Source: Bacteroidota bacterium
GTDB taxonomy: Bacteria > Bacteroidota > Rhodothermia > Rhodothermales > Bin80
Direction: 5' to 3'
Assembly (NCBI GenBank): GCA_026708685.1
Contig: JAPOUL010000027.1
Location: 1,208-65,207, forward strand
DNA length: 64,000 bases
Part shown: in pieces, positions 28,120 through 50,164 of the stretch
Layout: the number at the start of each line of letters is the position of its first letter
How positions within the stretch are numbered: the stretch's first letter is position 1
The notes under the pieces: generated by a model
Seen by the model: the letters and a program-made list of their open reading frames with translations, nothing else
Database searches by the model: none
Told to the model about the DNA's origin: nothing
Translations under genes and position numbers: made by a program

Positions 28120-29328
28120 TCATTCAGAGGAGGAGTTGCCTCGTGGAATAAAAGCCTGAATTCCTGTAATGGTGCGACCAAGAATGAGTCCATGAATATC
28201 ATAGGTACCTTCATAAGTGTTGACGCTTTCGAGGTTCATCATATGATGGATGACTCTGAATTCGCCACTGATCCCATTGCCCCCTAACATATCACGGGCA
28301 GTTCTGGCTATCTGTAAGGCAGAATTACAATTATTGCGCTTTGCCATGGAAACCATTTCTGGTGTGCTCTGACCAGCATCCATAAGTTGACCGATCCGCC
28401 ATGCAAAGAGTTGCATTTGTGTAATGCTGGTCATCATATTGGCAAGTTTTGTCTGAACGAGTTGCATGGATGCCAGTGGATTTCCAAATTGTTCTCGCTC
28501 CAAAACATACTGACGGGCCCTGTCAAAACAGTTTTCGGCCGCTCCGCAAGCTCCCCAGACGATTCCATACCGGGCACTGTTGAGGCATGTAAAGGGGCCA
28601 CGAAGTCCACGAATGTCAGGAAAGACTCGATTGTCGGGTACGAAGACATCCTGAAGAACGATTTCGCCAGTGATAGATGCACGTAGACTCATCTTGTTAC
28701 CCGTTTTTGGTGTCGTAAACCCTTCACTTCCCCGCTCAACAAGAAATCCTCGAATCTCCCCAGAATCATTGGGCGATTCTTTTGCTTTTGCCCATACCAC
28801 TGCAAGATCTGCAATAGGGGAGTTAGTGATCCACATTTTTGCTCCATTGAGTCTCCAACCTCCTTCAACCCGTAGAGCTGTTGTTTCCATAGAGCTTGGA
28901 TCCGATCCATGATCGGGTTCAGTTAAGCCAAAGCAACCAATGATTTCTCCAGTTGCAAGGCGAGGAAGAAAGGTCGTACGTTGTTCTTCTGTACCGAACT
29001 TAAGGATGGGTAGCATGACCAGTGAGGACTGGACAGACATAAAAGAGCGGTACCCAGAGTCGACGCGTTCTAATTCGCGTGCAACCAATCCATAGGCAGT
29101 ATAACTCACCTCTGCACCGCCATATTTCTCAGGGACAAACGAGCCTAAAAGGCCAATCTCTCCCATTTCTTTCACAATGTCCATGTGAAAGACTTCATCT
29201 TGATTCCCTTCCAATGCACGGGGTTCAAGTTTCTCCTGTGCATATCTTCTTGCACTGTTTTGGATGAGGATTTCTTCTTCACCCAAGAGAGTTCCTAAGC
29301 GAAGAAAATCATTGATATTGACGGCCAT
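28120..29328 (-). CDS. gcdH: Acyl-CoA dehydrogenase, glutaryl-CoA dehydrogenase-like
   Basis: This 402-aa protein is full length for the acyl-CoA dehydrogenase family. It shows [16 protein letters not shown] and [10 protein letters not shown] (FAD and substrate loops), [31 protein letters not shown] and the catalytic glutamate in [16 protein letters not shown]. The placement of that glutamate and the ALE-rich N-terminus match glutaryl-CoA dehydrogenases (FAD enzyme that oxidises and decarboxylates glutaryl-CoA to crotonyl-CoA in lysine/tryptophan breakdown). Substrate assignment is by family resemblance. It stands alone, and its electrons would pass to an electron-transfer flavoprotein not seen here. 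Confidence 0.88.
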
Positions 29329-29535
29329 AGATCACTGAGAGTGGTTTGATAAATGCAAGACGGAATGTGTCAAAAGGAGTTGATTGTATTTCAAGAATAC
29401 GACAAAGTGAGAGGATTTATTCAACGAGTTGAAGAATTTCAATAAGATGGATCTGCAACAAGTCAAGGATCTCATAGTTCCATGAGTTCACATTGTTATG
29501 AACACACATTTTTACCTTTTAGTTGCACTACCATC

Positions 29536-30048
29536 ATGCGATTGAGTTCTTGTAAAATATTCGTCTTTCTTATTGTACTCTTTGCGGTCTCCAGTGATCT
29601 GCGGGCACAATCATTTCGTCCAAAGATAGGTTTTGGACTGAGCCTCGTTGGTGGTACGACGGATCAGGCCGTAGGAACGGGACTTGACTTGAGGCTTGCA
29701 TGGGTAGTCAACCAGGATTTATCCATCGGCACTAGTGCCAACTTTGTGAACTACATCCTTGAAGGGCGCGACAATGCTGCCTATTTTTTCCATCCTAATG
29801 TCACCGCCATTGTAACCTTGGATGCTACAAACCTTCGCTCTCCCTACTTGATTTTGGGACTCGGTGGGAATTTACCTTTGGGAGGAGATGCGGACTCTGA
29901 CGAAGCGGGTCCATCCATTCACGGTGGATTGGGATGGGCCTTCTCTCTCCAATCTACGTCACTCTATTTGGAGATCACGCCAGCCATGATTGTCGTCCGT
30001 TCATCTGTAGAGTTCCAGCTTCCTGTGCGTTTCGGGGTCATTCTGTAG
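29536..30048 (+). CDS. Small outer-membrane beta-barrel protein
   Basis: From ATG 29536 this gives 170 aa with a signal peptide (MRLSSCKIFVFLIVLF…, cleavage near LRAQ), followed by alternating amphipathic strands (GFGLSLVGGTT, GLDLRLAWVV, PYLILGLGGNLPLGG, SLYLEITPAMIVV). It resembles the OmpA/OprF-like eight-strand barrel class. The function is unknown. An upstream in-frame ATG at 29482 adds 18 residues before the signal peptide and is less likely. Confidence 0.7.
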   Translation: MRLSSCKIFVFLIVLFAVSSDLRAQSFRPKIGFGLSLVGGTTDQAVGTGLDLRLAWVVNQDLSIGTSANFVNYILEGRDNAAYFFHPNVTAIVTLDATNLRSPYLILGLGGNLPLGGDADSDEAGPSIHGGLGWAFSLQSTSLYLEITPAMIVVRSSVEFQLPVRFGVIL

Positions 30049-30187: not shown

Positions 30188-31065
30188 ATGATGACGCTAC
30201 TGGTTGAAAAGTGGTTCGCACACCTACGATGGGGTAGCAATTCTATGTGCCCTAAGTGTCGATCAGATAACGTCTGGTAGGTGTAGTGCACCCATCTAAG
30301 CCTTACCGTTGCAGTAAGCGATTCAGTGTATATATTGGATCCGTCATGCAAGACTCCAAACTTGCCTATTGAGTATGGGCTATTGCAATTTATATCATGT
30401 CTACTGGTATTAAAGTTGTGTTCTCTATGAAGTTGCACTGTGGTTTAGGTATCACCCAGAAGACAGCATGGCATCTGGATAGGAGAATTCGTGAATTTTG
30501 GAACAACAGATCACTCAGTCTCTTTGACAGGCCTATTGAAATAGATGAAATCTATATCGGAGGCAAAGAGAATAATAAACATGAGCATAAGAAACTCAAT
30601 GCTGGTAGAGGAACGGTTGGTAAAACGGCAGTGATAGGTGCGAAAGATAGATCAACCAATGAGATTCAAGCCAACTTCGTTCAGAATACGACGGCTGTGA
30701 AGCTTACTGGGTTCATGTACAGTTCTTCTAAGGCAGGTTCTGATGTGTTCACAGATGATGCTATAGCTTATGAATCAAAAGGATATAATCATCAAACAGT
30801 TAAGCAGTATGTAGACAGCATGGCTCACACAAATGGCATAGAATCGTTTTGGGTGCTGTTGAAGCGTGGATACTATGGTAGTACGTATCATTACATGTTT
30901 GAATGGCAACTACAGCGATACGTAAATGAGTTCTCTGGCAGGCCCAATGCTCGTAGGCTGGATACAGAACGTCAAATGGAAAGAGTGACGATTGGGTTTG
31001 TAGGAAAACGCTTGACGTATCATCAACTGAGATCTGCTAACCCCGAGAGGACCTGTGGAATCTGA
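30188..31065 (+). mobile_element. Degenerate IS1595-family transposase
   Basis: The frame starting near 30188 encodes an N-terminal zinc-ribbon piece (MCPKCRSDNVW) and then hits a stop. After a frameshift near 30290 the sequence continues as PYRCSKRFSVYIGSVMQDSKLAY, another TGA near 30370, and then the open frame 30397-31065 (222 aa) with the ISXO2-like catalytic core: GITQKTAWHLDRRIRE, EIDEIYIGGKE (first Asp), VFTDDAIAY (second Asp) and NGIESFWVLLKRGYYG. The core is intact but the N-terminus is broken by at least one frameshift and one stop, so it is not an active element. Terminal repeats are not convincing. The element lies at the left edge of the restriction-modification island. Confidence 0.8.
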
Positions 31066-32014
31066 CTCTCTAAAAAATATGCTGACAGATATTGCAATCA
31101 AAGAGCGTAACAAAATCTGGGAAAACAATACTTATATACCCTCATGGGTTGACCCACGCAAAGTCGGTTTGGATCAGTTTTTCACTAAACCCGAAATCGC
31201 TTTAAAGTGTTACCGTTCTTTTATTGAATACATGAGATCTGACGGTGCCGATGTGCAGGACTATAATTTCATTGAGCCTTCTGCAGGCACAGGGGCTTTT
31301 TACGATCTTCTACCAGAGAACAATCGGATGGGCATTGATATCCTCCCCCTTCATCCAGATATAGTGCGGGCAGATTTTCTTTCATGGAACGCTCCAGACC
31401 CATCTATGCATTACGCAGTAGTGGGAAATCCTCCTTTTGGCTACCGAGGATGGCTTGCTCTGGCATTTGTAAATCACGCCGCACAATTTGCTGATTACGT
31501 AGGCATGATATTGCCTATGTCTTTCCAAAGTGATGGGAAAGGTAGCCCTAAGCACAGAGTTAAAGGGCTTAGGCTTGCTCATCAAGAGTACTTACCATCT
31601 GGCAGCTTTGTGCGTGATGATGGACGTGTTGCCCAGGTGAACGCTTTGTGGCAAATTTGGCAGCGTGGTGTAAACAATCTGGGCCCACATAAGACCTGTA
31701 ACGGATGGTTGGATTTGTTTACGGTGGACATGCGACAGGAGAGACGTTGCGGACATAACAGGATGAGAGATGCGGACTATTTCTTGCAAAGAACATTTTA
31801 CACTACCCCTCCCAGATTGGTTGAAGATTTCACCAAGGTTCGTTATGTGTGTGGATATGGATTGATATTAAAGCGGGAGAAAAGTGTAGTATATGATGTT
31901 CTTAATCAAACTGATTGGAGCAAATACAGTAATCTTGCCGCACACAACTGCAGGCATATCAGTATGTACCATATTCAAAAAGCTGTTACTGATGCGGGGT
32001 TTGTAGATGCTTGA
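31055..32014 (+). CDS. Adenine-specific DNA methyltransferase (type II-like)
   Basis: This 319-aa protein starts at GTG 31055, overlapping the transposase end, or at ATG 31079 region. Motif I EPSAGTGAF (residues 74-82), acidic strand GIDILPLHPDIVRADF, and the amino-methyltransferase motif IV NPPF at 125-128 identify an N6-adenine DNA methylase. C-terminal parts are variable and probably hold target recognition. The following ORF overlaps by eight bases and encodes a PD-(D/E)XK nuclease, so this is the modification half of a small type II system. The nuclease is broken by a stop, which would leave an orphan methylase protecting or marking sites. Confidence 0.8.
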   Translation: MESDSLKNMLTDIAIKERNKIWENNTYIPSWVDPRKVGLDQFFTKPEIALKCYRSFIEYMRSDGADVQDYNFIEPSAGTGAFYDLLPENNRMGIDILPLHPDIVRADFLSWNAPDPSMHYAVVGNPPFGYRGWLALAFVNHAAQFADYVGMILPMSFQSDGKGSPKHRVKGLRLAHQEYLPSGSFVRDDGRVAQVNALWQIWQRGVNNLGPHKTCNGWLDLFTVDMRQERRCGHNRMRDADYFLQRTFYTTPPRLVEDFTKVRYVCGYGLILKREKSVVYDVLNQTDWSKYSNLAAHNCRHISMYHIQKAVTDAGFVDA

Positions 32015-32531
32015 CACTGGTAAGATATTGAATGATGTTTTACAAAAACACCATGATTCGGATAAATGGGTAGGTGCTCCTTTTGAAGGAATCAAACGTC
32101 TCTCAAATACCAAAGTAGGTAGGGTTGGGCAAGATTTCATAGAAGAGTTATGTAATGTCTTAGGAATACCTTTTGAATTCCCCGAAAACCCAAAGGGCGT
32201 TCGGAAAAATTAATCTCCTTGGGACATTAAGGTAGGAGATATGACGTTTGAACTGAAAACAGCCACTGAGGACACGAGGGGGTACTTTCAATTCAATCAT
32301 ATCCGCTACCACAGAGAATATGATGCTTTGCTCTGTTTGGGAATTGCTCCTGCAAGAATAATGTTTCATGCATGGACAAAAGCGGATGTTACAACGAATA
32401 AAGCGGGCACATTGGTATCGATGGAAAAGGGAGCCAATGCTACGCACAAACTGACTAAGAAGCCAGACTCCCTTTTAGACATATCCGGCTTTGAAGATCA
32501 TATTTTAAGTTTGGTCACTGACCCCCGGTAG
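32007..32531 (+). pseudogene. Type II restriction endonuclease with one in-frame TAA
   Basis: A single frame runs through 174 codons with one TAA at 32211-32213 (codon 69). The first part reads KWVGAPFEGIKRLSNTKVG and GQDFIEELC; immediately after the stop comes SPWDIKVGDMTFELKTATED. This is a PD-(D/E)XK active site with Asp73, Glu82 and Lys84, typical of a restriction nuclease, followed by a QFNHIRYHREYDALL stretch. The remainder is open to 32531. The gene overlaps the methyltransferase stop, as expected for a restriction-modification pair. A lone nonsense change with everything else preserved suggests recent loss of cleavage activity. Confidence 0.72.
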
Positions 32532-32550
32532 TGGTTCATCACTGTCTTAC

Positions 32551-32634
32551 ATGGCTCAAAAGAAAAAAAATCTCGCTATGGGAATCATTGCGGGTATTGT
32601 TGTTGTGATTTCTGCACTATTGATCAACTACTAA
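32551..32634 (+). CDS. 27-aa single-span membrane peptide
   Basis: A complete ORF of 27 codons starts at an ATG with a basic N-terminus (AQKKKN) followed by one hydrophobic helix (MGIIAGIVVVISALLI) and a short NY tail. The layout matches type I toxins or phage-type small membrane peptides, but the gene is too short to assign by itself. It stands between the broken endonuclease and another decayed gene, 20 bp past the nuclease stop. No antisense RNA or other regulator is visible by eye. Confidence 0.4.
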   Translation: MAQKKKNLAMGIIAGIVVVISALLINY

Positions 32635-32719
32635 CACCAGTAATGTTGATCGGGATCTATGTTAGAGCAACTGTTCAACGCACACAATAGTTACCAAATA
32701 TTGATAAAGTGTTGAATCT

Positions 32720-33328
32720 ATGGCATATCGTAAACGAGTAAGTGAGCAAATGTGTAGTGCGATTATGACTGGTCTCACACAATACAGGTCGGGGGAAAAC
32801 AATAGCCCCCAACTCTTTAATGAAGAAGTGACAGCATCAATCGTAATTATAGACTTAAAGATATTGAAATGTGTATGCTTGAAAAAGCACTGGTTGCGTC
32901 CCAATTTATGTTTGATGATGAACAGTATAATCAACTGCCTCCCCAGCAACAGTTAGAAGAACTTGATAAAAGACAAATCTGCACTTTCCCAAGCACTGGA
33001 GGAATATGGAGGCTTTTGCAAAACCTACCATTCAAATCAAAAAAACGCCTCTCATGACACCCAGAGCAATATTTCTACGAAAATACTGAGGTTTTGCAAA
33101 AGCATCTATGGAGACATCTTATCGATGAATCAGTCTATTGGCACAACTCCTGCGGAGATAGTAAAGAGTCTTTTTAGGACTCTACTCGCTCCGAAGCGTG
33201 ACATAAACGGTAGGTATCTCAACAATCTAAGTACTCATGTATATAATTCCCTTTTATTGGCACATGCCGATCTCATCGGAGTAATTATAGTAAATGAGCT
33301 TTCATATAAGCAACAAACTATCAATTAA
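32720..33328 (+). pseudogene. Unknown gene broken by two frameshifts
   Basis: Three overlapping ORF pieces join into one continuous protein if two shifts are allowed. These are MAYRKRVSEQMCSA… to NEEVTAS, then NYRLKDIEMCMLEKALVASQF…EELDK in the next frame, then DKSALSQALEEYGGFCK… to the stop at 33328. The second junction lies at an AAAA run (about 32967); removing one A restores the frame. No family is recognised. The composition is protein-like and soluble. It sits in the restriction-modification island and ends 12 bp before the type III mod gene. Confidence 0.4.
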
Positions 33329-33340
33329 TTATTGTTAATA

Positions 33341-35269
33341 ATGACCAAAAACCTTCTTGATGATTTAACAGAATTACTGGCAACTGAGGAAGAATTCGTT
33401 GCTGATGGGGTTATTCTGAGGAATAAGGTAGTTGAAGCGGCTCTTGCGATGAATTGGCAGTTTTTAGAGTTGCTTATGAGATCTCCGAGAATCAAGACTC
33501 ACTTCTTCATTGAAGTTTCCGGGATATTGGTTTTTGATAAGGTGAAATTTCGTGATTTTATCTCCCATAAAAGTTTTTTACCTGATAGTTACACTGCTTT
33601 CAGAAATCGAATTGGACTAACAGATGAACATGATAATCATTTGAGTTGTTCACAAAATGTCGTGCTTACATGGGCTCATAAAGATTGTGTCCTTGAGGGC
33701 GGAATGACGAAGGAAGATCGTGGAAGAGATGAGGTATTTTGGAACACCATACTCTCACCAGATCAAATCACGCGTTTATATGAACCGAAAGTACTGACTG
33801 GATGGGAGCGTTGGAGTTATTCAGAAGAGAATGGAGTAGTTCGCCAATCTCTACCCGAAGTAAATGAGGATGATAATTTATTGATCAAGGGGAATAACCT
33901 GCTAGCACTTCATTCATTAACGGCCCGATATGCTGGCAAGGTAAAATTGATTTATATTGATCCACCGTATAATACTGGTAATGACGGATTTAAATACAAT
34001 GACAGTTTCAATCATTGTTCATGGTTGACATTTATGCAAAACCGGTTGGAAGTAGCAAAAATTCTACTTTCAAGAGACGGAATCATTGTTGTGCAAATCA
34101 ATGATAAAGAGCAGGCCTATCTAAAAGTATTAATGGATGAAATTTATGACAAAAACTATAGGGCTACCGTTGCCGTAAAGATGTCGCATCTTAGTGGTGT
34201 TAAAATGAGTCATAAACACAGAAAAATTCCAAAGACAATAGAATATTTACATATTTATTCATCTTTCCGAGGTCCAATTACAATCAGACCACAATATGTT
34301 GAGACATCTTGGGAAGATGCTTTCAATCGTTATCAATCATACATTGTCAAGCCTGATGATGACCCGGATGATTTCAAAAAATGGGTGGCAATTCCATTAC
34401 GGGAAGCTATCAAGAAGGCTAAAATAATACCATCTGACATAGAAGCAAAGCAAAGGTTCCTAATGTCCAATTCCGAATGCATATTTCGGACAGCCGTTAA
34501 TAGAAGTAAACAATATCCCAAGGAACCGAAGAATTCTTTCCTTAAAATAAACAATGTTTTCGTGTATAATGGGGAGGAAGTTGAAATTGCATCAAACAAA
34601 ATTCGGGAAATTAATGGAGTTCCTAAGCCAGTGTCGATAGTTGGTGATATATGGACAGATATAGGTATTAATAATGTATTTCAGGAAGGTGGTAAAGACA
34701 TAGTTTTAAGATTTGGAAAAAAGCCAGAAATGCTTTTAGAGCGGATTATCAGGATGTTTACTGATGAGGGTGATTTGGTATTAGATTTTTTTGCAGGCAC
34801 AGGTACCACCGCTGCCGTTGCTCATAAGTTGAGACGAAGATGGATAGCTATTGAACAACTTGATGATCATATAGACCAGATTCTTCGTAGAATGAAAGGT
34901 GTAATCAATGGAGATCAGACCGGAATTTCTAAGTCTGCATCTTGGAAGTTCGGAGGAGCTTTTTTCTACACAGAACTTGCGGAATTCAACCTGGCTATTT
35001 CTAAACGAATTGAATTAGCAACCAATTATGATGAGCTGGTTTCCATTAAGAATGAAATGAAAAACACTGGCTTTCTACGCTATAATGTAGATTTGGACTC
35101 TTTTGATCTAGAAGAATTAAAGAATCTTTCTCTGGAGGAATCAAAAAATGTTCTGAGAGATTGTTTGGATGCCAACCATCTGTATATAAATCTTAACTCA
35201 ATAGAAGATGAAAAATTTCAGATTTCACATGAAGATATTCGGATGAATCAATCATTTTATTCGACTTAA
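33341..35269 (+). CDS. mod: Type III restriction-modification system methyltransferase (Mod)
   Basis: From ATG 33341 this gives 642 aa. Beta-class amino-methyltransferase order is seen: motif IV IYIDPPYNTG (Asp about 207), then the variable target-recognition region, then motif I DFFAGTGTTAAV near residue 482, and RRWIAIEQ. It transfers a methyl group to adenine in an asymmetric site and is required for both modification and specificity of the type III complex. The restriction subunit begins one base after its stop. The frame is intact. An in-frame TTG at 33332 is less likely as a start. Confidence 0.92.
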   Translation: MTKNLLDDLTELLATEEEFVADGVILRNKVVEAALAMNWQFLELLMRSPRIKTHFFIEVSGILVFDKVKFRDFISHKSFLPDSYTAFRNRIGLTDEHDNHLSCSQNVVLTWAHKDCVLEGGMTKEDRGRDEVFWNTILSPDQITRLYEPKVLTGWERWSYSEENGVVRQSLPEVNEDDNLLIKGNNLLALHSLTARYAGKVKLIYIDPPYNTGNDGFKYNDSFNHCSWLTFMQNRLEVAKILLSRDGIIVVQINDKEQAYLKVLMDEIYDKNYRATVAVKMSHLSGVKMSHKHRKIPKTIEYLHIYSSFRGPITIRPQYVETSWEDAFNRYQSYIVKPDDDPDDFKKWVAIPLREAIKKAKIIPSDIEAKQRFLMSNSECIFRTAVNRSKQYPKEPKNSFLKINNVFVYNGEEVEIASNKIREINGVPKPVSIVGDIWTDIGINNVFQEGGKDIVLRFGKKPEMLLERIIRMFTDEGDLVLDFFAGTGTTAAVAHKLRRRWIAIEQLDDHIDQILRRMKGVINGDQTGISKSASWKFGGAFFYTELAEFNLAISKRIELATNYDELVSIKNEMKNTGFLRYNVDLDSFDLEELKNLSLEESKNVLRDCLDANHLYINLNSIEDEKFQISHEDIRMNQSFYST

Positions 35270-35270
35270 A

Positions 35271-37460
35271 ATGAGTCAGAGTCTTAGTCAAGAATTTGAC
35301 ACACTGTCTAAATTTGGCATTCTGAAGGATTATCTACCGATTGAAGTAACTTGCAATCTTTCTAAGCAGATTAAGTTGCGCCCTTATCAAGTGCAGGCAT
35401 TAAATCGATGGCTCTACTACATTGATGAATATGATGGGAGGCCATCAAGGTCTCATTTGTTGTTTCATATGGCAACTGGAAGTGGTAAAACTGTGTTGAT
35501 GGCCGCACTCATCTTAAACCTATACATACGAGGCTACCGAAATTTCTTGTTTTTTGTAAACTCCTCTCAGATCATTGAAAAAACCAGAGATAATTTTCTA
35601 AATCAGGTATCTCCCAAGCACTTATTCAATAATCCTATACGGATTGATGGCAAACCTGTAAACGTTCAATCGGTTGATACTTTTCAAGCTGTATCAAGCG
35701 ATGCAATCAATATTCACTTTACAACTATTCAAGGGCTTCATATTAGAATGAATACCCCAAAAGAAGATTCCATTACGATGGAAGACTTTCGTGAGTATAA
35801 AATTGTGATGATTTCAGATGAGGCACATCACCTAAATGCTGAGACGAAGAAAAATCGGACACAGACTGAAATCAAGCAAATCAACAGCTGGGAACATACG
35901 GTTACGAATATCTTTTGTCAGCATTCTGAAAATCTTCTATTGGAATTCACTGCAACTGCTGATCTGAATCACCCCGCAATCAGGGAAAAATACCATGATA
36001 AGATTCTGTATGATTATCAGTTGAAAGATTTCAGACAAGATGGTTACTCCAAAGATATTGAACTTAGGCAAGCTGACCTGCCTCCTTTGGATAGAATGAT
36101 ACAGGCAATGGTTCTGAGTCAATATAGGCGTAAAGTAGCTGAGGCTCATGGAATTCATTGTAAGCCAGTGATTTTGATGAAGTCAAAAACGATAGCCGAG
36201 TCTTCTGAGAATGAACGACTATTTACTTCCAAAGTCAAAAAATTGTCTGGTACAGATCTTTTGGAAATGCGAAATTCACTGTCGAGTGAAGATAAAACTC
36301 TCGTCCAAGCTTTCAAATATATCATTGATGAACATGGAGTAGACTATGATGAGTTTGCCCTTGAGTTACAGGGGGATTTCGGAGATGGTAAGATTGTTAA
36401 TGTAAACAAACCTAAGGATCTTGAAGAACTTCAGATTGACTTAAATAATCTTGAAGATCATTCAAATGACCTCAGAGTCATTTTTGCAGTGAATAAGCTA
36501 GATGAAGGTTGGGATGTTTTGAATCTTTTTGATATCGTCCGTTTGTATAATACCCGAGATAGCAAGGGGGATAAGATAGGTAGAACCACCATGTCTGAAG
36601 CTCAGTTAATCGGTCGAGGTGCTCGATATTTTCCTTTCATAGATCCATCTCAACCTGAGGCAATCCCAGAGATTCGCAAGTATGATAGAGATTTGAAGCA
36701 CCCACTGAGGATACTGGAGGAACTATACTATCATTGTTCGCACAACCCAAGATATATTGACGAAATCAAGAAAGCTTTGATAAAAATTGGAATGGAAGAT
36801 GACAACACACGCGAAGTGAATCTACGCTTGAAAGAAAGTTTCAAGAAATCACAATTTTATCAAATCGGATATGTTTGGATTAATAAGAGAGTAAAAAACT
36901 TAAATGAAGGTGTCACTAAACTTGACGATTATAAGATTGATAACTACTTCACATACTCTATACTAAACACTGGACATGTTGAGGAAACATCTGCTTTTTC
37001 AGATGAGATACCCGAAAGTAAAACGTTCATTGAGACACCAGTTTCCAGAGAACTACAACTTTCGGAGTTCAATAGGCATATTCTCAATTTTGCGATGGAC
37101 TCTAACGAATTTTTCCATTTTTCGAATGTAAAAAAATATTTTCCGCATATTACCAGCATATCTGAATTTCAGACTTCAAAATCATGCCTTGGTTGTGTGA
37201 AGGTTCAGGTTCGTGGATTAAAAAGGGATCTCGATAATATGAGTCCTAAAGAGAAATTGAAAATCGTACGGTATATTCTTTCCCAGATTGAGGAGAATAT
37301 AAAGCGTGAAAGTGTAGAATTTGTTGGAACCACCGAATTTACATCCCTCAAAGTCCGAGAGTGTTTCACTGATAAGAAAATTAAAATTCGTACTGAGGGA
37401 GAAGCTGGGTTAAGTTGGGAAAAAAGAATATTGATGGGCTTAACTTATTCAATCCCATAG
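35271..37460 (+). CDS. res: Type III restriction subunit (Res), helicase part, truncated by frameshift
   Basis: This 729-aa frame has the SF2 helicase/translocase domain: PYQVQALNRW (Q-like motif), Walker A ATGSGKT at residues 68-74, motif II SDEAHH near 184, FTATAD (motif III) and QLIGRGAR (motif VI). It ends early at 37458-37460, after an A6 run near 37420. The neighbouring frame from there encodes the missing C-terminal nuclease (see 37415-37894). As read, Res would have motor function but no cleavage domain. One extra A at the A6 run would restore a single ~870-aa Res. The Mod subunit upstream is intact. Confidence 0.85.
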   Translation: MSQSLSQEFDTLSKFGILKDYLPIEVTCNLSKQIKLRPYQVQALNRWLYYIDEYDGRPSRSHLLFHMATGSGKTVLMAALILNLYIRGYRNFLFFVNSSQIIEKTRDNFLNQVSPKHLFNNPIRIDGKPVNVQSVDTFQAVSSDAINIHFTTIQGLHIRMNTPKEDSITMEDFREYKIVMISDEAHHLNAETKKNRTQTEIKQINSWEHTVTNIFCQHSENLLLEFTATADLNHPAIREKYHDKILYDYQLKDFRQDGYSKDIELRQADLPPLDRMIQAMVLSQYRRKVAEAHGIHCKPVILMKSKTIAESSENERLFTSKVKKLSGTDLLEMRNSLSSEDKTLVQAFKYIIDEHGVDYDEFALELQGDFGDGKIVNVNKPKDLEELQIDLNNLEDHSNDLRVIFAVNKLDEGWDVLNLFDIVRLYNTRDSKGDKIGRTTMSEAQLIGRGARYFPFIDPSQPEAIPEIRKYDRDLKHPLRILEELYYHCSHNPRYIDEIKKALIKIGMEDDNTREVNLRLKESFKKSQFYQIGYVWINKRVKNLNEGVTKLDDYKIDNYFTYSILNTGHVEETSAFSDEIPESKTFIETPVSRELQLSEFNRHILNFAMDSNEFFHFSNVKKYFPHITSISEFQTSKSCLGCVKVQVRGLKRDLDNMSPKEKLKIVRYILSQIEENIKRESVEFVGTTEFTSLKVRECFTDKKIKIRTEGEAGLSWEKRILMGLTYSIP

Positions 37461-37894
37461 ATGAAGACTGGTATGCTTATGATGAAAATTACGGAACGGA
37501 CCAAGAAAAGTATTTCGTTCAATTTTTGAATGATCAATCTGATTCACTGAATAAACGATATGATGAATTTTATCTTCTTCGTAATCTAAAGGCGATAAAG
37601 CTCTTTTCTTTCAAGGATGGCAAAGGGTTTGAACCAGACTTCATCCTATTTCTTCGAAAAAAAGGTGAAGATGTTGGCAAAGTTCTTCAATTGTTTATTG
37701 AGCCCAAGGGAAGACATCTTATTGAGAATGATGATTGGAAGCAGAATTTTCTGACAGATATTGAATGGAAAGATCAGATAGAAGCAATCGGTGAGGGAAA
37801 TGAATATCGGGTCTACGGATTGCCTTTCTTCAATAACGAAGATCAGAATCAGTCAGAATTCAAAGATGCTTTCCAACAACTCTTAGACGGTTAA
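37415..37894 (+). CDS. Type III restriction subunit (Res), C-terminal nuclease part in shifted frame
   Basis: This 159-codon frame overlaps the end of the Res frame. It begins KKNIDGLNLFNPIDEDWYAY and carries a PD-(D/E)XK signature FEPDFILFLR…LQLFIEPKGRH, the usual endonuclease domain of type III Res proteins. It has no convincing start of its own (a TTG at 37415 within the A-rich region), so it is a detached part of the same gene. The break lies at GGGAAAAAAG (37418-37427), a homopolymer where indels or sequencing errors are frequent. Confidence 0.8.
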   Translation: MGKKNIDGLNLFNPIDEDWYAYDENYGTDQEKYFVQFLNDQSDSLNKRYDEFYLLRNLKAIKLFSFKDGKGFEPDFILFLRKKGEDVGKVLQLFIEPKGRHLIENDDWKQNFLTDIEWKDQIEAIGEGNEYRVYGLPFFNNEDQNQSEFKDAFQQLLDG

Positions 37895-38088: not shown

Positions 38089-39249
38089 ATGGGTTTGGAT
38101 TCTCAGAGCATTTCGTTGTATGTACACATACCATTCTGCACTCAGCGTTGCTCCTACTGTGATTTTTATTTTGTAACGACCAAGAGTGGCTATCAAGAAT
38201 TCGTTGATGCCCTGTGCCTTGAAATTACGCAAGTCGCACAATCCTACTCAAACCCATCGTTGTCAACCATCTATTTTGGCGGTGGGACCCCCTCTTTACT
38301 CCCATCATCTGCATTACAATACATCCTTGACCATATCCACCATTTGTTTCAAACGGGTCAGCTCCGCGAAGTGACCATTGAAGCAAATCCAGAGGACATC
38401 ACGGACCACTTTTTACATGAGCTATTGAACATTGGTGTAACCCGCGTCAGTTTGGGGGTTCAGTCATTTGATGATCACGATTTAAGGTTCATGAATCGGT
38501 GTCATGATAGCGATCAGGCCATTGAGGCATGTCGCAAGATCCAGTCTGCAGGCTTTAACAGTTGGTCCCTGGATTTAATTTTTGGAGTTCCAGATGTTTC
38601 TCTGACGAGATGGGAAGACAACTTGACGAAAGCGATCCATACGGGAGTACCACATATCTCCACCTACAGCCTGACGGTTGAACCCTCTACACCTTTGTAC
38701 AAACAGGTACAAAGGGGAAAAGTGATCATAAGTTCTGATTCACATATCTCGGATCAGTTTCAGTTGGCCATGGACATACTCCAAAAAGCGGGGTATCAGC
38801 ATTATGAAATTTCTAGCTTTGCACAGTCCGGGCATGAATCCCAGCATAATTCACAGTACTGGAGTCATGACAATTATCTTGGAGTGGGGCCGAGTGCTCA
38901 TTCATTCTGGTGGGAAGATGACGAGATTGTGCGCTGGGAAAACGTTCGCAATTTGAGGGTCTATTCAGATTTGATTTATCATCATGAGCCGCCGTTCTCC
39001 TTCAGGGAAACGCTTACAAAACAGGATCTTGTTCGTGAAAAAATCATGCTGTCGCTTCGTACATCTCAGGGAATTGATTTGAATGACCTTGAGCAGAAGT
39101 ATGGCTATCGTCTCCTAGATCATAAGCAGCAGCAACTTCAGTTGATGGAGTCAAATGGACTCATAACTCTAACCAAGTCATCGGTACGTCTGACGCAAAA
39201 GGGTAAGCATATCTGCGATCAGATCACTCAACGATTGTGGAATGATTGA
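38089..39249 (+). CDS. hemW: Radical SAM heme chaperone HemW
   Basis: This 386-aa protein is full length for HemW (formerly annotated as oxygen-independent coproporphyrinogen III oxidase-like). The radical SAM cluster motif CxxxCxxC is at residues 17-24 (CTQRCSYC), followed by YFGGGTPSLL, EANPEDIT, SLGVQSFDDHDLRFMNR and the YLGVGPSAHS segment. The C-terminal HemN-like helical domain is present. It binds heme and delivers it to respiratory proteins in the cytoplasm or at the membrane. The gene lies just right of the type III system and looks like a native chromosomal gene bordering the island. Confidence 0.93.
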   Translation: MGLDSQSISLYVHIPFCTQRCSYCDFYFVTTKSGYQEFVDALCLEITQVAQSYSNPSLSTIYFGGGTPSLLPSSALQYILDHIHHLFQTGQLREVTIEANPEDITDHFLHELLNIGVTRVSLGVQSFDDHDLRFMNRCHDSDQAIEACRKIQSAGFNSWSLDLIFGVPDVSLTRWEDNLTKAIHTGVPHISTYSLTVEPSTPLYKQVQRGKVIISSDSHISDQFQLAMDILQKAGYQHYEISSFAQSGHESQHNSQYWSHDNYLGVGPSAHSFWWEDDEIVRWENVRNLRVYSDLIYHHEPPFSFRETLTKQDLVREKIMLSLRTSQGIDLNDLEQKYGYRLLDHKQQQLQLMESNGLITLTKSSVRLTQKGKHICDQITQRLWND

Positions 39250-39358: not shown

Positions 39359-40021
39359 ATGCTTACTTTAATTTTGGTAAATGTTTTTACCGTCTTGGTA
39401 GTGATTGTTTCAGCAATTTTCATCTATAAACGAGCCTCCGTGCAACGCGAACGTCGTTTAGATTCAATGCATTTTACCTTACACAGGAAGGTCACCAAGC
39501 TTCAGCGTCGCTATGATAAGATGATGGATAAACTGAGGTATGAATTTCAGGCAAAAATGGCACTTATGGAGAAACGACTCCAGTACATTCAAGACAATGT
39601 AGATAGCATGCAGGGCGAGATGATTTATCGCCCGAAAGTGCACACGAACGAAACACTGATGTTTGATCGACAGATCCTTCGTCTGCATGGTTTTTCAAAA
39701 TTTCACTCCGATGGACATAAATCCAAAGTGGATCATGTCATCCATGCCACATCATCCACGGTGAGCCAGTCTTTGCGCGAGGGCTTCAACTTATCTGTCA
39801 ATGCAGAAGAGCCTCCTGTACTGGAGATGACAGGATCTGACTATGTGGGGGAAGTCTCACCAGATACTAGCCATATGACATCCCCATCCTACAATGTTCG
39901 TTACACGGTTCCTCGTCAATTCGCGGCTCACAACTGGTTAATCACCGATAGCCCCCATGGTCATGAGACTCTCAGTCATCCTTTTCATCATCTTAATTTC
40001 ACTAGCGAGGTGCTCAAGTGA
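39359..40021 (+). CDS. Hypothetical membrane-anchored coiled-coil protein
   Basis: This 220-aa protein has one N-terminal transmembrane helix (LTLILVNVFTVLVVIVSAIF) followed by a strongly charged helical region (KVTKLQRRYDKMMDKLRYE, MALMEKRLQYIQDN) with coiled-coil-like heptads. A low-complexity, His- and Ser-rich tail without motifs follows. No family is recognised. Its 3' end overlaps the next gene, the first DUF192 lipoprotein, by 65 bases in another frame, so the tail reading should be treated with caution. Confidence 0.6.
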   Translation: MLTLILVNVFTVLVVIVSAIFIYKRASVQRERRLDSMHFTLHRKVTKLQRRYDKMMDKLRYEFQAKMALMEKRLQYIQDNVDSMQGEMIYRPKVHTNETLMFDRQILRLHGFSKFHSDGHKSKVDHVIHATSSTVSQSLREGFNLSVNAEEPPVLEMTGSDYVGEVSPDTSHMTSPSYNVRYTVPRQFAAHNWLITDSPHGHETLSHPFHHLNFTSEVLK

Positions 40022-40421
40022 GCCCGAAGAGCTTCCAGTCGGAACCCTTGAATTCATCAGTGAAAACGCAGAGATCATCCACACGATTGATATCGAATTT
40101 GCAGAGGATGAACAGGCCCGTGCCACGGGATTGATGCATCGTCGTCAACTCTCTCTCTCAGAAGGAATGTTGTTCGTTTTTCCTGAACCAGATTCTTTGA
40201 GTTTTTGGATGGCAAACACTCCTATACCTCTAGATATTATCTTCGTGGGATCCGATTCTACGATTGTCAATATAGCCAAGCGTACTACTCCCTTATCACG
40301 AGAGTTTATTCGCTCCACTGATCTTGCTCAATATGTGGTTGAGGTGCGTGGGGGAGTCACTGATCGTTTTGGCATTGACTCATCAGCTAGGGTTCAATGG
40401 CGAAAAATACACAATGAATAA
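39957..40421 (+). CDS. DUF192 lipoprotein (first of two)
   Basis: This 154-aa protein has a hydrophobic signal and a lipobox-like end (ISLARC). The DUF192 domain follows: ATGLMHRRQLSLSEGMLFVFPEP, then SFWMANTPIPLDIIFVG, then VVEVRGGVTDRFGI. DUF192 proteins are small beta-barrel-like secreted proteins of unknown biochemical role. Its start overlaps the coiled-coil gene upstream and its end overlaps the second DUF192 gene by 8 bp, so the set is one transcript. Confidence 0.82.
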   Translation: MVMRLSVILFIILISLARCSSEPEELPVGTLEFISENAEIIHTIDIEFAEDEQARATGLMHRRQLSLSEGMLFVFPEPDSLSFWMANTPIPLDIIFVGSDSTIVNIAKRTTPLSREFIRSTDLAQYVVEVRGGVTDRFGIDSSARVQWRKIHNE

Positions 40422-40920
40422 TCCGATGGATATATTTCTATCAAATCATGGATGGGTAGGGATCTTACTGTTGTTGACATGCTTAGCTATTTCATGCCAG
40501 AGTTCTTCCTCCCCTCCCTCAACCACGCCTGAAATCCCTTTCAGAGTTGATGGATCGCTTGATTTTGTTCGTAGTGGGGAAGATTTTCTTACGCTTGACA
40601 TTGAAATTGCTGACACAGATTCACTTCGAGAGCGGGGAATGATGCAACGCAGTTCATTCCCACCCGAGTCAGGTATGCTATTTTTGTTTGATCACCAAGA
40701 ATTTCGTCAATTCTGGATGGGCAATACCCCCTTATCATTGGACCTGTTGTTTATTTCTAATGATTCAGCAATTGTTGACATTGCAAAATATGCCAAGCCC
40801 TATTCGCCCGATCCGATTGTGAGTCAGGCACCTGCTCAGTTTGTTTTAGAAGTTCCTGCGGGGTTTGCAGACACCAAAGGCATCGTAGAGGGCGATAGAG
40901 TTCAATGGATCCGTAATTGA
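40414..40920 (+). CDS. DUF192 lipoprotein (second of two)
   Basis: From ATG 40414 this gives 168 aa with an N-terminal hydrophobic segment ending in a lipobox (LAISCQ). The DUF192 domain follows (RERGMMQRSSFPPESGMLFLFD, FWMGNTPLSLDLLFIS, FVLEVPAGFADTKGI). It is a paralogue of the gene just upstream, clearly duplicated in tandem; the two are diverged but share all DUF192 blocks. An in-frame upstream start at 40324 adds 30 residues inside the upstream gene and is not needed. Confidence 0.82.
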   Translation: MNNPMDIFLSNHGWVGILLLLTCLAISCQSSSSPPSTTPEIPFRVDGSLDFVRSGEDFLTLDIEIADTDSLRERGMMQRSSFPPESGMLFLFDHQEFRQFWMGNTPLSLDLLFISNDSAIVDIAKYAKPYSPDPIVSQAPAQFVLEVPAGFADTKGIVEGDRVQWIRN

Positions 40921-41375: not shown

Positions 41376-42989
41376 TTAATTCTGATTCATTCTGAAGTGG
41401 TCTGCTATGATATCGAGCTTTTGAATCACTTCAGGGTGAATCTCCTCTGCATGCATGTGATAAGCAATGTCGCAGAAATCTGTATCTTGGATGTTGATTT
41501 TGGCGGCCTCACAAACTTCACGTAACACCATCTTTCCTTTTTTGCCATCAAAATAATTCCTCTCCAACGGCCGCAAAAAGAATGCTGGAGGAAAATATTC
41601 CCTCATATATTCGGTTGTGCATTCAACGGATTGGTGATCTCCTATGGAACCCATCCAGCGAAGAATTGCCGAAGGATGGATTAAGTAGTTTTCTATTTCA
41701 TAACGTTTCCAAATCAGAAGCTTCATCCCATCGGGTTGAAGTTGATCTTCTACTTCAGGGCCTTTGTTGTTTCTATCCTGAAGTTGAACCCCTTTGATGT
41801 GGTGTGCATGGATACGAACTGCCTTAAAATGGCGAACGGATCTCCAACTGTCTTCTGCAGTGAATTTGCAGAATGGCGATTCCAAAAATGTGTATAGTGG
41901 GTGATTCAGTGCATATGCCCAGGTTCTAAGAATTTTCAGATCTGTTTTGCCTTCCAAATATAGGACGCATCCAAACTGTTGGGCCATGATGATGTCCAAA
42001 TTGTTGAGATAGAGAGATTCAATCACCGTCTGTTCATCTGAAATTTTATTGAGACCCGCAGAGAGAACCCGGAGATCATGCAGGTTTGTCTCCTTGATCA
42101 GTCTCTCAGAATGCGTAGCAATGATCAATTGTTGCCCGTGAAGGCGAGATCGTTTTTTTAGATCTCGGTACAGTTTTTCCTGAAGAAATATATGTAGGTG
42201 AGCATCTAACTCGTCAATAAGTATGGTTGAAGATTCTTTCAGTAAGATAATTGCATAGATCATCAGGACCTGTAAGAAACCAGATGATGCACCCGATAAG
42301 TCCATCTCAAATTCTCCAACATCGTCCTGAAAACCAGCATAAACCGTCTGTACTCCAGCAATCGGCATCGTCAGCTGATATAGAAAGAGATCTTGGATAA
42401 TGCTCTGGAGTTCACTCCACTTATCGGGGCTACGACTAACCTCATAGAGCAGATTACGAACCACTGTTCCCGCATGTCCTGTAGCAATCCGTGTAGGGAT
42501 GACGCTTGATCTGTATGGCGGCTCATCCCGATCAACTCCTGACATGGGGGTGATCAAGGAAGTGATGAAAGGGTTACGGATATACTTTTTAAGCGTGGAT
42601 TCAGGCACTTCTTTCATGGGACGTATGTCCACGGATGTTCGCCCCCTGTAAACAAATTCAAATCCTATCGTCTCACCGTTGATTCGGAGTTGAATAGATG
42701 CTGGAGAATCAATGCATTGTTGATACCATAGATTCTTCCAGTCTTTGAGGACAATGGAGGATATTTCGATATAGCTGATCTCAATACTTGGATAGTGGCC
42801 GTCATCATCAAGGTCAAAAGGATCGCTTTTTTCTCCCCAAAGTGACATGACTTCAGACCATAAAGCAATGGTCTGGAGGAGAGTGGTTTTACCACAGTTG
42901 TTGGGGCCAACAATGACTACATGCTCATCAAGTGGAACATGAATTGACTTGAAGCGCTTGATATTTTGAATGTCTATCCGCTCAATCAT
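41376..42989 (-). CDS. ABC-type ATPase with C-terminal Toprim-like domain (OLD/PARIS-like)
   Basis: This 537-aa protein starts with an SMC/RecF-like ATPase: Walker A GPNNCGKTT at residues 28-36, signature LSGASSG at 231-237, Walker B STILIDELDAH at 254-264 and the switch His in ATHSE. The C-terminal third looks like a Toprim/DUF4435 nuclease domain: LYLEGKTD (Glu346), LQDRNN near 405 and WKRYEIENYL at about 427. OLD family nucleases and PARIS AriA-AriB proteins combine the same two parts, and both act in phage defence. The acidic pair of the Toprim site is only partly preserved (D-R-N), so activity is uncertain. The gene is solitary. Confidence 0.75.
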   Translation of the reverse strand: MIERIDIQNIKRFKSIHVPLDEHVVIVGPNNCGKTTLLQTIALWSEVMSLWGEKSDPFDLDDDGHYPSIEISYIEISSIVLKDWKNLWYQQCIDSPASIQLRINGETIGFEFVYRGRTSVDIRPMKEVPESTLKKYIRNPFITSLITPMSGVDRDEPPYRSSVIPTRIATGHAGTVVRNLLYEVSRSPDKWSELQSIIQDLFLYQLTMPIAGVQTVYAGFQDDVGEFEMDLSGASSGFLQVLMIYAIILLKESSTILIDELDAHLHIFLQEKLYRDLKKRSRLHGQQLIIATHSERLIKETNLHDLRVLSAGLNKISDEQTVIESLYLNNLDIIMAQQFGCVLYLEGKTDLKILRTWAYALNHPLYTFLESPFCKFTAEDSWRSVRHFKAVRIHAHHIKGVQLQDRNNKGPEVEDQLQPDGMKLLIWKRYEIENYLIHPSAILRWMGSIGDHQSVECTTEYMREYFPPAFFLRPLERNYFDGKKGKMVLREVCEAAKINIQDTDFCDIAYHMHAEEIHPEVIQKLDIIADHFRMNQN

Positions 42990-49248: not shown

Positions 49249-50164
49249 ATGGCATCCATTCAACCTATCGTTGGTGATGATAACCCTTTCACGATTTGGG
49301 GATACTCGGATGCCCATGCGGATGTCCAGTACGTTCATGTCTTTACCATTGAAGACCGATTGGGCCATGATCGTTCAGGTCCAATTGATGTCTTAGTCAC
49401 CTCTGAGAACCCTATCACGAGAGAGTGACATACATGGGATCATGGTCAGATAAACTACGGTGACAGCACCGTAGGGTATGTATTTGAGGCGAAGTTCAAA
49501 GCCAATTATGATGAGCGATATCGGTTAATCGTACGGCGTTCGGATGGTGTAGAATCCACTGCCGAAGTTATGATTCCTCCATCGGTGCAGGTAGAACTGA
49601 CTGGAGAGCGTGACCAAGCAGATGTGCCTGTAAAAATCATTGGAAAGCCGCCTAATCTTGTTGATGTAGATGTTCTGTATGATGTAATCACTTTACATTG
49701 AGTTTTCAGTGGCCTCTGGGGCAACTGCAGGGGTAAGGGTCAGATTGCCTGTGGATATTTCCTATGAGGGAAAGAGAGATCTACATCTGATGAATGGAAT
49801 TTCGAGGTCAACTTGCGTGAGGATTTTGCTGAAGTTCAAGACCAGTTTGGCAGGAATTGTCTCTCAACGGATCACATTGCACTACGACGGATTCATTTTC
49901 GATTTTTTGCAACAAGATCAGCAATGGTTACTTCCCAACGGTTCCTTTGATCCTAATTTATTGGTTGAACCCGGCACTTTTTCCAATATTGACAATGGGT
50001 ATGGGTTCTTTCGGGGAGGTTCTACGGTTTCGGTGGGATGGTTTCCAAGTTTGATTGTCCAGCGAAATATAGGATTCCGAACTGCAAGTCCCTGCCCGAT
50101 GGGGGCACGCAACATTCCTGTGTGTCAGTTATTCCCAGAACCCTGTCTAAGTCAAGGGGAATGA
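49249..50164 (+). pseudogene. Decayed gene of unknown (possibly DUF4249-like) secreted protein
   Basis: From ATG 49249 the frame reads protein-like sequence (IQPIVGDDNPFTIWGYSD…) with in-frame stops at 49426-49428 and 49699-49701, then continues in shifted frames: SVASGATAGVRVRLPVDISYEGK, then WNFEVNLREDFAEVQDQFG in a third frame, then LLVEPGTFSNIDNGYGFFRGG and a Cys-rich tail ending at 50162. The GxFSNIxNGYGxF pattern recalls DUF4249 proteins of Bacteroidota, often lipoproteins of TonB-linked loci, but I cannot confirm it. At least two stops and two or more frameshifts show the gene is dead. Confidence 0.7.

What the first reader, a model, noticed from the sequence alone, without database searches (positions are those of the whole stretch)
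32007..32531. Type II restriction endonuclease split by one TAA directly before its active site
Codon 69 is TAA; the next codons read SPWDIKVGDMTFELK, a textbook PD-(D/E)XK site (Asp73, Glu82, Lys84). No other lesion is visible and the gene overlaps its methyltransferase. Loss of the nuclease while the methylase stays intact is the expected path when a restriction system is discarded, and here it appears caught early.
Basis: partly seen in the sequence, partly recalled or inferred. Interest (0 to 1): 0.55.

Follow-up and report, generated by a model that had tools for sequence, protein, structure and literature searches.

The report
Restriction enzyme gene with nonsense codon
A bacterial DNA-cutting enzyme gene carries a stop codon just before its active site while its partner methylase is intact, and the restriction system next to it has its cutting domain out of frame too, so the cell probably still marks its DNA but no longer cuts with either system, which is a familiar kind of decay.

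Summary
Confirmed. Window 32007-32531 is one frame with a single internal TAA (codon 69), just before Asp73 of a D-x8-E-x-K nuclease site. The same methylase-nuclease pair, without the stop, lies in two metagenome bins (L004 complete; L003 cut by its contig end after 124 codons). The X-masked protein matches PADLOC Type II nuclease models; the L004 protein is predicted to have a PD-(D/E)XK-like fold. The methylase is intact. A two-piece active enzyme is excluded for ordinary starts: the first in-frame start after the stop is codon 79, so Asp73 is in neither piece.

Both systems lie in an 8.8 kb interval that measures 0.8-1.0 kb in three of six measurable congeners. Of 18 genes nearby with sister orthologues, 17 are intact and one is a multi-lesion pseudogene; so genuine decay is likelier than poor assembly, but no reads were available. 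Ordinary in kind; mildly interesting as a double loss of cutting with both methylases kept.

The parts
31055..32014 (+). Type II DNA methyltransferase, open frame from GTG 31055; ATG 31079 (311 codons) is the likelier start because it aligns with the ATG of L003
   Evidence: PADLOC PDLC03280 MTase_II E 2.2e-57
32007..32531 (+). Type II restriction endonuclease gene interrupted by one in-frame stop; 8-base overlap with the methylase
32211..32213 (+). internal TAA, codon 69
32214..32258 (+). SPWDIKVGDMTFELK, predicted catalytic site (Asp73, Glu82, Lys84); P, W, D, F, E and K are invariant in the three sequences
32241..32531 (+). 96-codon frame from the first in-frame start after the stop; holds Glu82 and Lys84 but not Asp73
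33332..35269 (+). Type III methylase Mod, open frame without a stop
   Evidence: PF12564 and PF01555, PDLC03635 E 1.3e-162
35271..37460 (+). Type III Res, helicase part; frame ends early
   Evidence: PDLC03651 profile 13-702 of 873; relatives match to residue 711-713
37415..37894 (+). Type III Res, nuclease part, in another frame, with FEPDFILF...FIEPKG
   Evidence: PDLC03651 profile 724-853 of 873, E 6.2e-18
37420..37425 (+). run of six A inside the stretch where the frame changes
30397..31065 (+). IS1595-family transposase frame at the left edge of the island, ending 13 bases before ATG 31079
   Evidence: PF12762 E 1.1e-24, NF033547 E 3e-30

Best explanation
A Type II restriction-modification pair whose nuclease gene has been knocked out by one nonsense codon, while its methylase stays intact. 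Translation stops after 68 residues, before all three predicted catalytic residues. A restart at ATG 32241 would miss Asp73. The methylase is expected to go on modifying its target (inferred, not shown). The same has happened in the neighbouring Type III system: Mod open, Res nuclease domain out of frame. The island therefore probably methylates DNA in two patterns and restricts with neither. Loss of cutting first, with modification kept, is the route that harms the cell least, because losing the methylase first would expose the genome to its own nuclease (established reasoning; stated in PMC6471742, passages seen).
For: One stop, no frame change and no second stop in 174 codons. Relatives with methylase and nuclease side by side without the stop: L004 complete at 179 aa; L003 with the same 8-base overlap, cut by the contig end after 124 codons. 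X-masked protein to PDLC03515 REase_II E 1.2e-11 and PDLC03498 E 1.7e-7. Model of the L004 protein, mean pLDDT 82.3, best matched by nucleases: I-Ssp6803I Z 10.6 (rmsd 2.7, 121 aligned), NhoI Z 8.9, Eco15I N-terminal domain Z 8.4. No ATG/GTG/TTG between the stop and codon 79. Methylase 63-65% identical to both relatives over its length without a lesion. Type III: PDLC03651 split over two frames; 4 of 4 relatives continuous. Sequence accuracy: 17 of 18 genes with sister orthologues in the window intact over 20,259 aligned bases.
Against: No reads: a consensus error or a strain mixture in a 170-contig draft cannot be excluded. Only two relatives of the nuclease were found, one of them incomplete. 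Methylase and nuclease activity, and the target sequence, are untested. No Pfam or NCBIfam family reached its cut-off with the nuclease, and no solved structure is a sequence relative.
Confidence: 0.82

Rival explanations
1. Assembly or consensus error, or a minority strain variant, at codon 69; the living population has an intact nuclease.
For: The genome is a draft in 170 contigs. The neighbouring res lesion lies by a run of six A, a typical place for a length error. No reads could be consulted.
Against: The nuclease lesion is a substitution-type stop with the frame kept. 17 of 18 genes with sister orthologues in the window are intact over 20,259 aligned bases. The eighteenth carries several lesions, so it is a real pseudogene and shows that this genome decays.
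Confidence: 0.1
2. The gene still works, by read-through of the stop or as two fragments that assemble.
For: ATG 32241 is preceded by AGGTAGGAGAT, which could serve as a ribosome-binding site. The residue at the stop column is not conserved between the two relatives.
Against: Asp73 is in neither fragment. ATG 32241 is not matched by a Met in either relative. Read-through of TAA at a useful level would need a suppressor, for which nothing was seen: ARAGORN found no tRNA gene in the window and the rest of the genome was not scanned.
Confidence: 0.03
3. The Type III neighbour is not broken: the nuclease part of Res is made by ribosomal frameshifting or as a separate subunit, so only the Type II system has lost cutting.
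For: The second frame overlaps the first by 46 bases, opens with TTG 37415, and keeps its PD-(D/E)XK-like residues.
Against: 4 of 4 relatives have one continuous frame of 852-865 codons. Around the A-run the upstream frame reads GAA AAA AGA, which is not a canonical X XXY YYZ slip site (read from the sequence; the motif is recalled).
Confidence: 0.12

Closest known systems
Type II R-M pair in Anaerolineaceae MAG RHO3_bin_8 (L004) and Gammaproteobacteria MAG CAR3_bin_20 (L003)
   Same: Gene order, methylase 63-65% identical, nuclease about 50% identical, invariant D, E and K; in L003 also the 8-base overlap
   Different: No stop codon in the nuclease frame; no IS1595 transposase or Type III system was seen in the ORF lists of the flanks held, read by eye
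Degraded R-M systems that leave a methylase next to a broken nuclease (Seshasayee et al. 2012, as cited in PMC6471742, passages seen)
   Same: Methylase intact, nuclease degraded, horizontally acquired appearance
   Different: Here two adjacent systems of different type show it
R-M erosion in Mycoplasma agalactiae (PMC9465063, passages seen)
   Same: Truncated or frameshifted restriction and modification genes in natural strains
   Different: There repeat tracts switch methylase genes on and off; here the nuclease stop is a point lesion without a repeat tract
PD-(D/E)XK nucleases I-Ssp6803I, NhoI, Eco15I N-terminal domain
   Same: Predicted fold
   Different: 10-12% sequence identity in the structural alignments, so no family membership follows

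Membership tests
Type II restriction-modification system | DNA methyltransferase of a Type II class | tested here: met
   PDLC03280 MTase_II E 2.2e-57; NPPF motif invariant in three sequences (motif meaning recalled)
Type II restriction-modification system | cognate restriction endonuclease gene next to the methylase | tested here: met
   as a gene remnant: X-masked protein to PDLC03515 E 1.2e-11; the same pairing in L003 and L004
Type II restriction-modification system | uninterrupted nuclease frame | tested here: not met
   TAA at codon 69
Type II restriction-modification system | methylase and nuclease act on the same DNA sequence | not testable with these tools
   target unknown
PD-(D/E)XK nuclease fold | D, E/D and K around a central sheet | tested here: met
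   on the relative L004: model pLDDT 82.3, Z 10.6 to I-Ssp6803I; D, E, K invariant in three sequences
Type III restriction-modification system | Mod with N6/N4 methylase and Type III Mod domain | tested here: met
   PF12564, PF01555; PDLC03635 E 1.3e-162
Type III restriction-modification system | Res with helicase and nuclease in one chain | tested here: not met
   two frames; one frame in 4 of 4 relatives

The most novel reading that the evidence does not exclude
Loss of cutting was selected, not drifted: two unrelated R-M systems side by side each lost the nuclease by a separate lesion while both methylases were kept, so the island persists as a double methylation module (for example for gene regulation or for evading restriction by other cells), or only nuclease-dead versions could establish in this genome.
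Probability: 0.15. Interest if true: 0.5.

Novelty: new member of a known kind. Interest (0 to 1): 0.28.

Why it matters
It is a clean natural example of how restriction systems are discarded: a stop just before the catalytic residues, with the gene otherwise unmarked by decay. That two adjacent systems of different type show the same order of loss in one genome makes a testable case for selection against cutting. It also warns that gene presence alone would overcount active restriction systems in draft genomes.

Tried and rejected
Alternative genetic code: not pursued as an explanation, because the 17 intact orthologues in the window align without internal stops under table 11. Second-half subunit: rejected for ordinary starts. 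Phage origin: the nuclease has no match in phages or plasmids at E 0.01; viral-contig scans with the methylase and with alignment A1 found no relative; the methylase has matches below 60% identity in 209 phage and 7 plasmid records, which says only that the methylase class is widespread. Orthologue in the order: 11 of 114 genomes, own included, matched the methylase alignment at E 1e-10, but other than our own gene (666 bits) no match exceeded 82 bits; a second, weaker match of 70 bits lies in our own genome. Nuclease in the phylum: 2 of 296 genomes sampled, our own and a weak one at 26% identity, E 2.1e-4. Sequence search of solved structures: nuclease alignment only chance-level methyltransferase matches at E 0.21-0.64, methylase alignment nothing at 0.01. 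IS1595 inverted repeats: one 16-base pair at 81%, one arm inside the methylase frame, not convincing. Promoter and terminator scans gave no more than shuffles. Literature: five searches; one search found nothing. I make no claim that this double loss is absent from print.

The five AlphaFold models had mean pLDDT 82.3, 79.6, 72.1, 62.2 and 58.2 on a four-row alignment; the best was used.

Full report
The observation. Window 32007-32531 is a single frame of 174 residues with one internal TAA, codon 69 at 32211-32213. The codons after it give SPWDIKVGDMTFELK with Asp73, Glu82 and Lys84. The other two forward frames hold 12 and 17 stops in the same stretch. The frame begins inside the last 8 bases of an open methylase frame.

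What the gene is. The methylase was used to scan genome contigs; two loci encode a relative: L003, titled a Gammaproteobacteria bin, and L004, titled an Anaerolineaceae bin. In both the methylase is followed by a nuclease frame without the stop. L004 is complete at 179 residues; L003 has the same 8-base overlap but its contig ends after 124 codons. The X-masked window protein is 51% identical to L004. The methylases are 63-65% identical. PADLOC models name the methylase MTase_II (PDLC03280, E 2.2e-57) and the nuclease REase_II (PDLC03515, E 1.2e-11); each side of the stop matches alone. Pfam and NCBIfam gave no match above cut-off for the nuclease.

Fold. L004 was modelled with L003 and the two window pieces as alignment rows: mean pLDDT 82.3, pTM 0.79 for the best model, 58.2 for the worst. 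Foldseek found two solved chains at E up to 0.001, I-Ssp6803I and NhoI. VIA-align gave I-Ssp6803I Z 10.6 (rmsd 2.7, 121 aligned), NhoI Z 8.9 and Eco15I N-terminal domain Z 8.4, then Holliday junction resolvases and DpnI. This supports a PD-(D/E)XK-like fold, not membership in any of those families. The D-x8-E-x-K residues are invariant in the three aligned sequences.

Can it still work? After the stop the in-frame ATG, GTG or TTG codons are 79, 108, 111, 119, 136, 139 and 169. A restart at codon 79 would give Glu82 and Lys84 without Asp73; the first piece has none of the three. So two pieces made from ordinary starts do not together hold the site. Neither relative has a Met at codon 79.

How recent? 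Before the stop, the window agrees with L004 at 31 of 68 and with L003 at 34 of 68 shared columns, and they agree with each other at 32 of 69 (32 of 68 when restricted to shared columns would differ by at most one). After the stop, over 53 columns shared by all three, the figures are 35, 36 and 31. So the window copy is not more diverged than the intact ones on either side. A random substitution in this frame makes a stop with probability about 0.037 (transition weight 2). The absence of a second lesion bounds further neutral changes at about 79 (no indels), 34 (5% indels) or 21 (10% indels) at the 95% level. The lesion is therefore young on the scale of divergence from these relatives, and no closer date is possible.

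The neighbouring system. Downstream lies a Type III system. Mod, 33332-35269, is open. Res is split: 35271-37460 matches PDLC03651 positions 13-702 of 873, and 37415-37894, in another frame, matches positions 724-853 with E 6.2e-18. In a sample of 296 genomes of the phylum, 5 had Res matches at E 1e-80, our own included. In the 4 others the match runs to query residue 711-713 and the frame is open for 852-865 codons. The nuclease part aligns directly after the helicase part in the same frame in all 4. The frame changes in a stretch that holds a run of six A at 37420-37425. The second piece keeps FEPDFILF and FIEPKG.

The setting. Acyl-CoA dehydrogenase (28120-29328) and a HemW-like gene (38089-39249; name recalled from its sequence) are separated by 8,760 bases here. 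By the coordinates the same two genes lie on one contig in six congeners, at distances of about 1,003 (G246), 831 (G299), 983 (G167), 2,562 (G298), 4,193 (G274) and 2,414 bases (G258). In the three short ones only the orthologue of the 29482-30048 frame was seen between them. Of the sister ORFs of 90 residues or more in the nine fetched stretches, none matched the window between 30,046 and 38,088 at E 1e-10. So the R-M island is absent from those sister sites. G+C is 44.5 and 44.4% for the flanks, 44.2 and 41.5% for the Type II genes, and 36.7 and 36.9% for mod and res, so the two systems may have come separately (inference). An IS1595 transposase frame stands at the left edge.

Is it an assembly fault? 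Sister orthologues cover 18 genes of the window. In 17 the alignment runs nearly end to end in one frame without a stop, 20,259 aligned bases. The eighteenth, a DUF4249 gene at 49255-50158, has in-frame stops and frame changes at several places. Real pseudogenes therefore occur here, and single-base faults are not common in the conserved genes. This lowers, but does not remove, the chance of error at the two R-M lesions. No reads were available.

Reading. The likeliest account is natural loss of cutting in both R-M systems with both methylases kept. [quoted passage not shown] R-M erosion by frameshifts is described in Mycoplasma agalactiae (PMC9465063, passages). The finding is thus a new example of a known kind.

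Limits. The host is an unnamed draft genome of 3.83 Mb in 170 contigs. The target sequences, expression and activities are unknown.

Noticed in passing
window 37415-37894 and 35271-37460: Type III Res gene split into helicase and nuclease frames, continuous in 4 of 4 relatives
   Followed up: yes
window 49255-50158: DUF4249-type gene with several stops and frame changes against an intact sister orthologue L062:1200-2207: an older pseudogene
   Followed up: partly
window 41376-42989, - strand: AAA ATPase of the AriA/OLD/GajA kind by PADLOC (best E 1.9e-22), 3.5 kb from the R-M island; possible further defence gene
   Followed up: no
L016 514-993 and 1084-1899, own genome contig C112: A second, distantly related Type II methylase (PDLC03255 E 1.5e-28) beside a frame with a D-x8-E-x-K motif but no PADLOC match; possibly another R-M pair
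   Followed up: partly
window 30397-31065: IS1595 transposase frame ending 13 bases before the likely methylase start; partial copies of 66-75% identity (best stretches) elsewhere in the genome
   Followed up: partly
window 32532-33331: 0.8 kb between the two R-M systems with short frames that match no Pfam or PADLOC family
   Followed up: partly
window 39957-40421 and 40324-40920: Tandem pair of related small genes, also paired in sister genomes
   Followed up: no
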